From assembly GCF_014652415.1 (NCBI RefSeq), contig NZ_BMYT01000001.1:310001-374000 (forward strand): a stretch of 64,000 bases of DNA, given 5' to 3'. Position numbers and translations under genes: made by a program. Shown here in pieces: positions 50,393 to 54,613 of this stretch. This DNA comes from Affinundibacterium macrobrachii (GTDB lineage Bacteria > Pseudomonadota > Gammaproteobacteria > Burkholderiales > Burkholderiaceae_D). Numbering within the stretch: position 1 is the stretch's first letter; every line of letters begins with the position of its first letter. Below the pieces are notes generated by a model. The model was given only the letters and a program-made list of their open reading frames with translations, did not search any database and was not told the DNA's origin.

Positions 50393-50485
50393 TTTATTTA
50401 AAACGATGAAATTATTTTTCATTTTTTTTGATTTATTTCAGGTTTGCATCGCACATAACCGCAAAAAAACCGTTACACTACGCGA

Positions 50486-50569
50486 ATGAAAAATTTTACC
50501 GACATGTCTTCTCCAAATATCGCTCGACGTCGCTGTTCGCACACCGAGCCTGGGAAGTCTTGCGCGTAA
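50486..50569 (+). CDS. putative arginine leader peptide (attenuator of argD-argF-argG)
   Basis: This is a 27-codon ORF (a second ATG at 50504 gives 21 codons) ending 20 bp before a U-tailed terminator and 202 bp before argD. Residues 14-16 are three consecutive Arg, encoded CGA CGT CGC (50525-50533). The rest is not hydrophobic and not a known family. No clear Shine-Dalgarno is present; a TACACT at 50474-50479 would start transcription about at the ATG, so it could be leaderless or read from 50504. Codon content, position and the pairing potential described with the terminator make a regulatory leader peptide the best reading. A small protein without such a role, or chance, remains possible. 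Confidence 0.6.
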   Translation: MKNFTDMSSPNIARRRCSHTEPGKSCA

Positions 50570-50621
50570 GAAAAGCAAGGTCACGATAAAACCACAGGCT
50601 CAAACCCTGTGGTTTTTTTTT
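50546..50621 (+). promoter_or_regulatory. putative arg attenuator: antiterminator/terminator switch
   Basis: The terminator is AAACCACAGG (50589-50598) paired with CCTGTGGTTT (50606-50615), followed by nine T in total (50613-50621). GAGCCTG (50546-50552), inside the Arg leader ORF, is the exact complement of CAGGCTC (50595-50601), which spans the terminator's 5' arm and loop, so the two structures exclude each other. A ribosome stalled at the Arg codons would leave GAGCCTG free and cover an upstream strand (TCTTCTCCA, 50507-50515) that can pair with TGGGAAG (50551-50557). A ribosome at the stop codon would cover part of GAGCCTG. These positions fit classical attenuation. Confidence 0.6.
50589..50621 (+). 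terminator. intrinsic terminator in the argD leader
   Basis: A perfect 10-bp stem with a 7-nt loop (CTCAAAC) is followed by an uninterrupted run of nine T. It lies 150 bp upstream of argD on the same strand, where a constitutive terminator would silence the operon. This implies a regulated attenuator or a separate short transcript. Confidence 0.85.
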
Positions 50622-50771
50622 GCGCGCTGGTGGATTTGCTTGTGGATGAGATGGCAGATCTGCTGACGTATGCTGAGAGTGGTCGTTCTGCGGTAACATC
50701 TTTCGCTTATTCTGTTTTTGTATTTAATTTTGGATTTTTAGTCTTTGTTTTCTTCTTTGAGGAGTTTTGAA

Positions 50772-51989
50772 ATGGAATTTAGTCAGTACAACGTCAATGC
50801 CCTGATGTACATCACACCGCGTCCTGAGTTGGTGTTTACGGAAGGCCGAGGCATGTGGCTGACTGACCATAATGGCAAACGTTACCTTGATTACTTGCAA
50901 GGTTGGGCGGTTAACTGCCTAGGACATTCTCCACAATGCATCACCGATGCGGTGGTCGCTCAAGCCGGAAAATTGCTCAATCCTTCGCCTGCTTTTTACA
51001 ACGAAAACATGGTCTTGTTGGCCGATCAACTAACCAAGCATTCTTGTTTTGATCGCGTCTTCTTTGCCAATAGCGGTGCCGAAGCGAATGAAGGTGCAAT
51101 TAAATTAGCGCGTAAATGGGGACAAAAAAATAAGAACGGCGCGTTTGAAATTATCACTTTCGATCACGGCTTCCATGGCCGTACTCTCGCCACTATGTCT
51201 GCTTCTGGCAAACCGGGTTGGGATACTATCTTTGCACCGCAAGTGACAGGTTTTCCGAAAGCTGATTTAAACGATATCGCCTCGGTTGAAAAACTCATCA
51301 ACGACAAAACCGTGGCAGTCATGTTAGAGCCTGTGCAAGGCGAAGGCGGCGTGATTCCAGCGAGTCGCGAATTCATGCAAGCACTGCGTGCGCTGACTAA
51401 GAAGCATAATATTCTATTGATCGTCGACGAAGTGCAAACAGGCATGGGACGTACGGGCGAATTATTTGGCTACCAACTCTCAGGCATAGAGCCGGACATC
51501 ATGACCTTGGGCAAAGGCATAGGCGGTGGCGTGCCACTAGCAGCCTTGTTAGCAAAAGAAGAGGTTTCCTGCTTCGTACCTGGTGATCAAGGTGGCACTT
51601 ATAACGGCGCACCATTGATGACTGCGGTTGGCTTGGCTGTCATCAAAGCACTGACCGTACCGGGTTTCTTAGATGAAGTGAAAGCAAAATCTGTGTATTT
51701 GAGCAAAGCACTGAATACACTTTCCGACCAATTCGGCATGGAAGGTGAGCGCGGTGAAGGTTTATTACGCGCACTCAAACTCGGCAGCGATATCGGCCCG
51801 CGTTTGGTCGAAGTCGCGCGTGATCTGGAGCCGATTGGTTTACTCATCAATTCCCCACGTCCTAACTTACTCCGCTTCATGCCCGCGCTGAATGTCAGCT
51901 ACGAAGAAATCGACACCATGATTTCTATGTTGAGCAAAGTCATCCAACAGGTGATAGACGAAAAAGCCGCAGCATCGACAGCATCCTAA
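50772..51989 (+). CDS. argD: acetylornithine transaminase
   Basis: ArgD is a PLP enzyme for the fourth step of arginine synthesis and may also serve as succinyldiaminopimelate transaminase. The start was set at the ATG at 50772 because GAGGAG lies 7 nt upstream (50759-50764), giving 405 residues. Key features are [15 protein letters not shown], the Asp of [16 protein letters not shown], and the PLP Lys in [10 protein letters not shown]. It leads argD-argF-argG, 25 and 62 bp apart, and is preceded by the putative Arg attenuator. Confidence 0.96.
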
Positions 51990-52014: not shown

Positions 52015-52932
52015 ATGGCTATCAAACACTATTTACAGGTCGCCGACCTGACGCTTGATGAATACGACTATCTGATGCAAAGAGCTCGGATCATCAAAGA
52101 TCGCTTTAAAAAATACGAACCCTATCACCCGCTTTTGGATAGAACACTGGTGATGGTATTTGAAAAAAATTCCACTCGGACGCGCTTGAGTTTTGAAGCA
52201 GGTATGCATCAATTAGGCGGTGCGGCAATTTATTTGAATACGCGCGATAGCCAACTTGGTCGTGGCGAGCCAGTAGAAGATGCAGGTCAAGTCATGTCAC
52301 GCATGTGCGACATCATCATGATCCGTACCTTCGAACAAGAGATGATAGAAAAATTTGCCGCGAATTCACGCGTGCCTGTCATTAATGGTTTGACCAATCA
52401 GCATCATCCTTGCCAAGTGTTCGCCGATGTATTTACCTTCATCGAACATCGCGGTTCCATCGCTGGCAAAAAAGTCGCGTGGATAGGTGATGCGAACAAT
52501 ATGCTGTACTCATGGATGCAAGCGGCGAAAGTATTTGGATTCCATTTACATATTTCGACGCCAAAAGGCTATGACATTGATCCGGCTTGTGTGACAGTCG
52601 AAGCGGAACACTACACCGTTTTTGATAATCCATCAGATGCCTGCGTCGGTGTCGATGCCGTCAATACTGACGTGTGGACCAGCATGGGTTACGAAGCGGA
52701 AAATCAAGCTCGCCTGAAAGCGTTTGACGGTTGGATTGTGGACGAAGCAAAGATGGCGCGTGCAAATCCTGATGCGATTTTTATGCACTGCTTGCCAGCA
52801 CATCGCGGTGAAGAAGTATCCGCAGGCGTTATCGATGGCCCGCAATCTGTAGTTTGGGACGAAGCTGAAAACCGCTTGCACGTACAAAAAGCCTTACTCG
52901 AATATTTAGTCATCGGCAAAGTCGATAACTAA
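52015..52932 (+). CDS. argF: ornithine carbamoyltransferase
   Basis: ArgF makes citrulline from ornithine and carbamoyl phosphate. The 305-residue protein has the carbamoyl phosphate motif [11 protein letters not shown] (about residues 46-56), the ornithine loop [15 protein letters not shown], and the HPCQ motif in [12 protein letters not shown]. The length is standard. It lies between argD and argG and shares the leader-controlled transcript. Confidence 0.97.
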
Positions 52933-52994: not shown

Positions 52995-54224
52995 ATGAGC
53001 GACGTCAAAAAAGTAGTGTTAGCGTATTCCGGTGGTTTGGATACTTCCGTTATTTTGAAATGGTTGCAAGACAACTACAAATGCGAAATCGTCACGTTCA
53101 CCGCCGATTTAGGTCAAGGCGAAGAACTCGAACCCGCACGTGCCAAGGCCTTGAAATTCGGCATCAAACCAGAAAATATTTTCATCGATGACGTACGTGA
53201 AGAATTCGTTCGTGACTTCGTCTTCCCTATGTTCCGCGCCAACACCGTGTATGAAGGCGAATACTTATTGGGTACTTCGATTGCACGTCCACTCATCGCC
53301 AAACGCCTGATCGAAATCGCCAAACAAACGGGTGCCGATACGATCTCTCACGGTGCAACTGGCAAAGGTAACGACCAAGTACGCTTTGAACTCGGCGCTT
53401 ATGCATTGATGCCAAACGTCAAAGTCATCGCACCATGGCGTGAGTGGGACTTATTGTCACGCGAAAAATTGATGAAATATGCCGAAGATGCAGGTATAGA
53501 AATCGATCAAAAACACAAAAACGGCGGCGCGCCCTACTCCATGGATGCCAATTTATTACACATCAGTTTTGAAGGTCGCCATTTAGAAAACCCAAGTGCC
53601 GAAGCTGAAGAATCAATGTGGCGTTGGACGGTCAGCCCAGAAGCAGCACCAGATCAAGCAGAATACCTCGACATCGAATACGAAAAAGGCGATATCGTCG
53701 CATTGAATGGCGTACGCATGTCACCAGCAACAGTACTCACTGAACTCAATCGCTTAGGCGGAAAACACGGCATTGGTCGTTTAGATTTAGTTGAAAATCG
53801 TTTCGTTGGCATGAAGTCACGCGGTTGCTACGAAACCCCTGGCGGCACCATCATGTTACGTGCTCATCGTGCGATCGAATCCATCACTTTAGATCGCGAA
53901 GTTGCGCACTTGAAAGACGATTTAATGCCACGTTACGCCAGCTTGATTTATAACGGCTACTGGTGGTCTCCTGAGCGTTTGGCATTGCAGACCCTGATCG
54001 ATCACACACAACAAAATGTGAACGGCTGGGTACGCGTCAAACTGTACAAAGGCAATGTGATTACGGTGTCTCGTGACTCCAAAACAGACTCCTTATTCGA
54101 CATGAACATCGCAACCTTCGACGAAGACGGTGGTGCTTACAATCAAGCCGATGCAGGCGGTTTCATTAAATTGAATGCCTTGCGTATGCGGATTGCAGCG
54201 AATGCAAAATTGAAACGCGGTTAA
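52995..54224 (+). CDS. argG: argininosuccinate synthase
   Basis: ArgG condenses citrulline and aspartate with ATP. The 409-residue protein has the PP-loop [15 protein letters not shown] (residues 10-24), [11 protein letters not shown], and the substrate region [16 protein letters not shown]. It is the type of about 400 residues, not the 445-residue E. coli type. It completes argD-argF-argG; argH is not in the window. A GC-rich hairpin follows the stop. Confidence 0.97.
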
Positions 54225-54292: not shown

Positions 54293-54613
54293 ATGACCAC
54301 ACAATTCGACCAAGTTAGCGTCATCAAAAAAGCCAATCTCTATTTCGACGGCAAATGTGTTTCGCATACTGTGCTTTTCCCTGATGGCAGTAAAAAAACT
54401 ATAGGCGTCATCTTTCCATCCAGCCTCACCTTCAACACAGGCGCAGCAGAGATTATGGAAATCAACGCAGGTGTTTGCCGCATCACACTAACTGGCGACA
54501 ATACGTTCAAGGAATATCGCGCAGGGCAATCTTTTTCTGTACCTGCAAATTCTAGTTTTCAAATCGAGACCTTAGAAACCTTAGATTATGTCTGCCACTT
54601 TATCGATGCATAA
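54293..54613 (+). CDS. ppnP: pyrimidine/purine nucleoside phosphorylase
   Basis: The 106-residue protein matches PpnP (YaiE, DUF1255), a cupin-like nucleoside phosphorylase with broad substrate range. Typical segments are [42 protein letters not shown] and the [12 protein letters not shown] loop. The length is that of the family. It lies downstream of argG and may be read from its own promoter. Confidence 0.92.

What the first reader, a model, noticed from the sequence alone, without database searches (positions are those of the whole stretch)
50486..50621. Arg leader-peptide attenuator upstream of argD-argF-argG
A short ORF with three consecutive Arg codons (CGA CGT CGC) is followed by a perfect 10-bp terminator with nine U, 150 bp before argD. 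GAGCCTG in the ORF is perfectly complementary to CAGGCTC in the terminator arm and loop, so a 2:3 antiterminator is possible, and TCTTCTCCA/TGGGAAG gives a plausible 1:2 hairpin masked by a ribosome at the Arg codons. Arginine genes in E. coli are controlled by ArgR repression, not by attenuation. A leader-peptide arg attenuator would be new to me. The weak point is the lack of a clear Shine-Dalgarno.
Basis: partly seen in the sequence, partly recalled or inferred. Interest (0 to 1): 0.85.

Follow-up and report, generated by a model that had tools for sequence, protein, structure and literature searches.

The report
Arginine-sensing attenuator ahead of argDFG
Just before three arginine-making genes of an Undibacterium-like bacterium lies a conserved short reading frame with three arginine codons followed by a terminator-like hairpin, predicted to let the genes be read only when arginine runs short, in a bacterial order where a search of 349 genomes found no match to the usual arginine repressor.

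Summary
At 50486-50621 there is a 27-codon ORF (MKNFTDMSSPNIARRRCSHTEPGKSCA) and a terminator-like hairpin, 150 nt before argD-argF-argG. From relatives and the window 86 distinct copies were compiled, 85 with argD within 700 nt downstream. A separate detector finds such an element before argD in 34 of 80 relatives, but before 1 of 306 other ORFs. In the Collimonas/Herminiimonas type the peptide drifts near-neutrally except at the Arg codons, which change mostly synonymously. With a ribosome modelled at the Arg codons, the terminator's 5' arm is mostly paired upstream in 82 of 86 copies; with a ribosome at the stop codon, in 4 of 86. The missing Shine-Dalgarno has an explanation: in 78 of 86 copies a promoter-like sequence ends 6-8 nt before the ATG, so the leader is likely a leaderless mRNA. 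The window's own -35 is weak. An ArgR domain was found in 0 of 349 genomes of the order. No Rfam family matches, and ten paper searches found no arginine-biosynthesis attenuator of this type. Termination, translation and the arginine response are untested.

The parts
50474..50479 (+). -10-like hexamer TACACT, 6 nt before the ATG; the best -35 (CGCACA, 50450-50455) is weak
   Evidence: Sequence: 7 of 12 matches here; 78 of 86 copies have at least 8 of 12 with the -10 ending 6-8 nt before the ATG.
50486..50569 (+). leader ORF, 27 codons, MKNFTDMSSPNIARRRCSHTEPGKSCA
   Evidence: coding constraint at the Arg codons. Translation not shown.
50507..50515 (+). segment 1 (TCTTCTCCA), predicted to pair with segment 2 when no ribosome is present
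   Evidence: Fold of the whole leader.
50525..50533 (+). control codons CGA CGT CGC
   Evidence: Sequence; first codon CGA in 86 of 86 copies, run of three or more Arg in 71 of 86.
50546..50554 (+). segment 2 (GAGCCTGGG), 5' side of the predicted antiterminator
   Evidence: GAGCCTGGG or GGGCCTGGG in the 21 Undibacterium-type copies.
50588..50598 (+). segment 3, 5' arm of the terminator (AAAACCACAGG); antiterminator pairing reaches 50601
50606..50616 (+). segment 4, 3' arm of the terminator (CCTGTGGTTTT)
   Evidence: CCTGTGG is kept in the alignments.
50613..50621 (+). T tract of the terminator
50772..51989 (+). argD, acetylornithine transaminase
   Evidence: NF002985, 741 bits, cut-off 568.
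52015..52932 (+). argF, ornithine carbamoyltransferase
   Evidence: TIGR00658, 345.9 bits, cut-off 280.85.
52995..54224 (+). argG, argininosuccinate synthase
   Evidence: NF001770, 624.6 bits, cut-off 334.

Best explanation
The stretch 50486-50621 is a conserved leader (a 27-codon ORF with CGA CGT CGC, then a terminator-like hairpin) that likely works as a ribosome-mediated transcription attenuator, predicted to let RNA polymerase into argD-argF-argG only when charged tRNA-Arg is short. Seen in the sequence and by computation: the ORF, its Arg run, the hairpin, the order before argD, their conservation, and the complementarities. Inferred: transcription would start at or next to the ATG, so that ribosomes would begin on a leaderless mRNA. 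With enough arginine the ribosome would run to the stop codon, cover segment 2 and leave segment 3 free to form the terminator with segment 4. With too little it would stall at the Arg codons, leaving segment 2 free to pair with segment 3 before segment 4 is made, and so prevent termination. Without a ribosome a long 1:2 hairpin over the ORF would mostly favour termination again.
For: Conservation: 33 of 80 argD loci by terminator plus in-frame Arg pair, 34 of 80 by an independent rule against 1 of 306 control ORFs; 71 places with E below 1e-6 in 70 of 145 genomes of the family, 70 of them before argD. Selection on arginine decoding: single-base codon differences are synonymous in 0.85 (Collimonas/Herminiimonas type) and 0.98 (Undibacterium type) at the Arg codons, against 0.31-0.33 in the codons after them. 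Switching: 5' arm of the terminator mostly paired upstream in 82 of 86 copies with a ribosome at Arg, 4 of 86 at the stop, 18 of 86 without ribosome. The 1:2 helix is better paired and covaries more than in 500 of 500 shuffles and than all six slid versions. Promoter placed for a leaderless start in 78 of 86 copies against 154 of 14185 ATGs. No ArgR domain in 349 genomes of the order. The genes are those of arginine synthesis.
Against: No RNA or protein was measured. Shuffled leaders also pair with the arm (mean 0.49 against 0.74) and only 22 of 86 copies lie in the best 5% one by one; the fold energy is on average only 0.93 sd better than shuffles. The terminator form is the more stable in 79 of 86 copies (median 9.1 kcal/mol; window 2.2), so antitermination must win by forming first. 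The 2:3 helix shows no covariation beyond shuffles, and for the 1:2 helix two of five measures do not exceed shuffles: pairs with changes on both sides, 10 against 10.7, and further pair types, 25 against 30.9. The window and seven near copies have a weak -35. 41 of 80 argD loci lack the element. One copy, L158, has a single Arg codon in the ORF; one, L097, precedes a GNAT gene.
Confidence: 0.87

Rival explanations
1. The hairpin is just the terminator of an independent small RNA or of the upstream reductase gene, and the Arg codons are incidental.
For: The terminator is the most conserved part and the one-window scan is not above chance.
Against: The Arg run is in frame with the promoter-proximal ATG in 86 of 86 scored copies (partly so by construction of the set) and changes synonymously; an ORF of this kind with terminator lies before 1 of 306 other ORFs; L158 shows that the Arg run can decay, but it is one of 71 places.
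Confidence: 0.05
2. The peptide itself, inside the ribosome, senses arginine, ornithine or a related metabolite and arrests translation (as SpeFL or the fungal arginine attenuator peptide do), rather than slow decoding at Arg codons.
For: In Undibacterium the stretch MSSPNIA before the Arg run is kept with a synonymous fraction of 0.92. Arginine-linked control through a leader ORF exists in Salmonella speF (PMC6386406, passages).
Against: In the Collimonas/Herminiimonas type the residues before and after the Arg run are near-neutral (0.32-0.33 synonymous, 0.24-0.26 expected), while the Arg run is kept.
Confidence: 0.05
3. The leader acts on translation or decay of the argD mRNA, or through Rho, and not on intrinsic termination.
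For: Salmonella speF works through Rho, translation and decay (PMC6386406, passages).
Against: The distance from the T tract to argD varies from 16 to 252 nt among 85 copies, so no fixed pairing with the argD ribosome-binding site is kept, whereas the terminator arms and the T tract are.
Confidence: 0.03

Closest known systems
Ribosome-mediated attenuators of amino-acid operons (trp, his, leu, ilv, thr, phe; named from memory and from PMC1262725, passages)
   Same: Short ORF with a run of codons for the pathway's own amino acid, alternative 1:2, 2:3 and 3:4 pairings, intrinsic terminator before the first gene.
   Different: The amino acid is arginine; the leader ORF is predicted to be leaderless; the first control codon is always CGA.
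Sinorhizobium meliloti trpL leader (PMC7298713, passages)
   Same: The attenuator RNA starts with the ATG of the leader ORF.
   Different: Tryptophan codons, trpE(G) gene, Alphaproteobacteria; there the start is mapped, here only predicted.
Salmonella speF orf34 leader (PMC6386406, passages)
   Same: Consecutive Arg codons in a leader ORF sense arginine.
   Different: Has a Shine-Dalgarno, controls ornithine decarboxylase through Rho, translation and decay; no intrinsic terminator; Gammaproteobacteria.
Pseudomonas carA leader (PMC4997734, passages)
   Same: A leader peptide and suspected attenuation before a gene that also serves arginine synthesis.
   Different: Attenuation there is linked to pyrimidines; arginine acts at the transcriptional level.
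uORFC-8-2 motif before cysS (PMC8632094, passages)
   Same: uORF with tandem control codons and ribosome-mediated attenuation, predicted by comparative genomics.
   Different: Cysteine codons, a tRNA synthetase gene, Alphaproteobacteria.

Membership tests
Ribosome-mediated transcription attenuator of an amino-acid operon | short leader ORF with a run of codons for the amino acid made by the operon | tested here: met
Ribosome-mediated transcription attenuator of an amino-acid operon | intrinsic terminator between the leader ORF and the first gene | tested here: met
   Stem and T tract conserved; termination itself not shown.
Ribosome-mediated transcription attenuator of an amino-acid operon | antiterminator that is free when the ribosome is at the control codons and covered when it is at the stop | tested here: met
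   By folding: 82 of 86 against 4 of 86; no covariation for 2:3.
Ribosome-mediated transcription attenuator of an amino-acid operon | 1:2 pairing that frees the terminator when nothing is translated | tested here: met
   39 copies of one type, three of five measures above shuffles and best of the slides on paired cells and covariation score; arm paired without ribosome in 18 of 86.
Ribosome-mediated transcription attenuator of an amino-acid operon | leader is translated and read-through follows the charging of the cognate tRNA | not testable with these tools
   Needs bench work; coding constraint at the Arg codons only.
Leaderless leader-peptide mRNA | transcript begins at the ATG | tested here: inconclusive
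   Promoter position fits in 78 of 86 copies; no 5' end mapped; weak -35 in the window.
ArgR/ARG-box repression | ArgR encoded in the genome | tested here: not met
   PF01316: 0 in the own genome; PF02863: 0 of 349 genomes of the order, 8 of 14 control genomes positive.
T-box or other Rfam leader | match to an Rfam covariance model | tested here: not met
   No match at gathering score in the window, none up to E = 1 at 50400-50800.
Nascent-peptide arrest leader (SpeFL type) | conserved peptide sequence beyond the control codons | tested here: not met
   Synonymous fraction 0.32-0.33 outside the Arg codons in the Collimonas/Herminiimonas type; but 0.92 for codons 7-13 in Undibacterium, so not excluded there.

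The most novel reading that the evidence does not exclude
A leaderless arginine leader-peptide attenuator is the ancestral device for arginine control in Betaproteobacteria, standing in for the missing ArgR. In Undibacterium the terminated leader RNA and its selected peptide MSSPNIARRR also act in trans on other genes, as described for the S. meliloti trpL leader.
Probability: 0.25. Interest if true: 0.85.

Novelty: new variant of a known kind. Interest (0 to 1): 0.68.

Why it matters
How bacteria without ArgR control arginine synthesis looks open for the Betaproteobacteria: a regulon study says that ArgR is highly conserved in many gammaproteobacterial groups but absent in other classes (PMC5343134, passages), and I find no ArgR domain in 349 genomes of the order. 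This element offers a specific mechanism for part of them, with control codons, antiterminator and terminator placed to the base. It would add arginine to the amino acids sensed by leader-peptide attenuation. The predicted leaderless start and the fixed first codon CGA (86 of 86 copies, but 13 of 142 Arg codons in seven window genes) make direct predictions about initiation and decoding.

Tried and rejected
Searching annotated plasmids with the leader found nothing. The plain promoter and terminator scans gave no excess over shuffles and are not used as evidence. RNAalifold on alignment A4 gave only a weak consensus (-2.87 kcal/mol), so the helices were tested one by one. A whole-order pattern search for promoter plus ATG plus CGACGNCG was first written with the wrong spacing and repeated: 41 of 300 genomes matched, and the tool's backward control pattern matched in some genomes too. 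By eye I recognised in-frame Arg leaders in 10 genomes, all at argD; I judged most other matches to be chance. A candidate in L200 showed no argD, argF or argG match and no terminator that I could see, and was dropped. The energy column 'no terminator' is invalid, because the constraint removed the antiterminator too; one search replaces it. Locus L185 was read at the wrong offset; read again, it has an Arg-rich ORF but no run of four T before argD, and counts as lacking the element. L027 was dropped from alignment A4 (39 of 40 equal-length copies used) because its Arg run lies at another codon; L146 was left out of alignment A5 but is in A6.

Considered and rejected as main reading: independent sRNA, nascent-peptide arrest, translational or Rho control, ArgR, T-box (see rivals and membership test).

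Full report
What is there. At 50486-50569 an ATG ORF encodes MKNFTDMSSPNIARRRCSHTEPGKSCA, with the Arg codons CGA CGT CGC at 50525-50533. A hairpin follows at 50588-50616, with nine T ending at 50621. The next gene, 150 nt on, is argD, followed by argF and argG, all confirmed by NCBIfam models above cut-off. No Rfam family matches. The closest named relative of the ArgD protein listed is from Undibacterium fentianense, 98% identical.

Is it more than chance? I took 80 argD loci from named genomes and looked upstream. A first search, for the conserved terminator plus an in-frame Arg pair, found the element in 33 of 80 loci and the window. An independent rule (10-45 codons, three Arg in four residues, a terminator within 90 nt of the stop) found 34 of 80, of which 32 have a promoter-like sequence next to the ATG. 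The same rule gave 1 of 306 control ORFs from the same loci, 0 with a promoter. The first set holds four loci that the second lacks, and the second holds five that the first lacks; joined they make 38 of 80, and L074, seen by eye, makes 39. The other 41, among them Achromobacter, Bordetella, Alcaligenes, Zoogloea and three of four Glaciimonas loci, showed none.

How far it reaches. A covariance model from 22 copies finds one strong place in the own genome, this one; three further hits have E about 0.25. In the family it finds 71 places with E below 1e-6, in 70 of 145 genomes (counted from the list; the tally of 96 there uses E up to 0.1 and includes terminator-only hits). I examined all 71: 70 precede argD, and one, L097, precedes a GNAT acetyltransferase gene. 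One of the 70, L158, has the terminator and a short ORF but only one Arg codon in it. From 104 inputs (window, 33 named loci, 70 unnamed loci) came 86 distinct elements; L158 was not scored and 17 were duplicates. In other families of the order the model is weak (26 of 349 genomes at E up to 0.001, several of them looking like chance terminators). Reading argD upstream regions directly shows the same layout there: of 15 other ArgD loci (16 of 120 genomes had a match at its strict limit), 7 have an Arg leader with terminator (L178, L180, L184, L186, L187, L190, L192; L186 judged by eye, as the detector missed it) and 8 do not.

What is conserved. Two main sequence types exist: Undibacterium (MSSPNIARRRxSxxEPG) and Collimonas/Herminiimonas (often LRRRxPLPQPGKPCA). 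In both, five codons usually separate the Arg run from the PG codons. In the second type the codons before and after the Arg run show a synonymous fraction of 0.32-0.33, near the 0.24-0.26 expected for random single changes, but 0.85 at the Arg codons. In the Undibacterium type it is 0.98 at the Arg codons, 0.92 for MSSPNIA and 0.31 after the Arg run (the pairs are not independent). So the general constraint is on decoding of arginine. The first codon is CGA in 86 of 86 copies, against 13 of 142 Arg codons in seven window genes. The longest Arg run is three in 65 copies, two in 15 and four in 6.

Why there is no Shine-Dalgarno. TTGAC lies 35-37 nt before the ATG in 77 of 86 copies, and a promoter with at least 8 of 12 matches has its -10 ending 6-8 nt before the ATG in 78 of 86, against 154 of 14185 ATGs in the loci held. 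By the usual spacing (recalled) transcription would start on the A of the ATG or one to two bases before it. The eight exceptions are the window and seven near copies: their -10, TACACT, is still 6 nt before the ATG, but the -35 is weak. Several other-family leaders show the same spacing, for example TTGACA-17-CACAAT-6-ATG in L184. A leaderless attenuator leader is known for trpL of S. meliloti (PMC7298713, passages).

How it would work. I folded the RNA left free downstream of a ribosome, assuming that it covers 15 nt from the first base of its A site. At the second Arg codon the 5' arm of the terminator is mostly paired with upstream RNA in 82 of 86 copies; at the stop codon in 4 of 86; without ribosome in 18 of 86. 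In Undibacterium the antiterminator is GAGCCUGGG x CCACAGGC(UC), extended in five of the ten shown by a long inner stem to -30 kcal/mol or below. In the other type it is mostly GCCGUG...CGUGA x UCACG...CACAGGC, over the last codons and the stop. Both segments lie where a ribosome at the stop codon would cover them. The 1:2 helix that masks segment 2 when nothing translates was counted on 39 copies: 71.6% of cells paired against 68.1% shuffled (0 of 500 as high) and at most 50.1% when slid; covariation score 0.186 against 0.157 (0 of 500) and at most 0.109 slid; cells changed on both sides 36 against 27.8 (14 of 500). Two measures do not exceed shuffles: pairs changed on both sides and further pair types. 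The 2:3 helix pairs in 87.8% of cells against at most 44.0% slid, but is too invariant to show covariation beyond shuffles.

Weak points. Shuffled leaders also pair with the arm (mean 0.49 against 0.74), copy by copy only 22 of 86 are in the best 5%, and the mean fold z is -0.93. The terminator is the more stable form in 79 of 86 copies (median 9.1 kcal/mol, window 2.2), so antitermination must win by forming first, as in the classical cases (recalled). Nothing here measures RNA or protein.

Regulator background. ArgR: PF01316 gives no hit in the own genome (99% complete), and PF02863 none in 349 genomes of the order, while 8 of 14 control genomes ring. PMC5343134 (passages) says that ArgR is highly conserved in many gammaproteobacterial groups but absent in other classes.

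Literature. Ten searches of the open PubMed Central library listed no leader-peptide attenuator for arginine biosynthesis that I could recognise. Passages of PMC1262725 name arginine under T-boxes, not attenuators; PMC6245113 (passages) says that attenuation controls no arginine gene or operon in E. coli; PMC2965389 (passages), a broad terminator survey, does not hold the word arginine in its main text. Subscription papers are mostly missing from this library, and supplements were not read; the 2004 survey of proteobacterial attenuators (Vitreschak et al.) was seen only as a reference in PMC1262725. I call the element new within that limit.

Verdict. By anatomy and comparative evidence a real, conserved arginine leader-peptide attenuator of the classical kind, with a new amino acid and a likely leaderless start.

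Noticed in passing
Possibly an arginine attenuator on a transporter.
   Followed up: partly
window 50504-50524 and the Undibacterium copies: The stretch MSSPNIA before the Arg run is under strong synonymous constraint (0.92), unlike in other genera; the peptide may have a function of its own there.
   Followed up: partly
L158 (G038:C4): Element before argD in which the Arg run is reduced to NRGS, one Arg codon: a natural decayed or altered copy.
   Followed up: partly
L097 (G037:C11): A full arginine leader and terminator stand before a GNAT acetyltransferase gene, not argD.
   Followed up: partly
window 54293-54613: A 106-aa ORF after argG resembles pyrimidine/purine nucleoside phosphorylase, below the model's cut-off (51.9 of 143 bits).
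   Followed up: no
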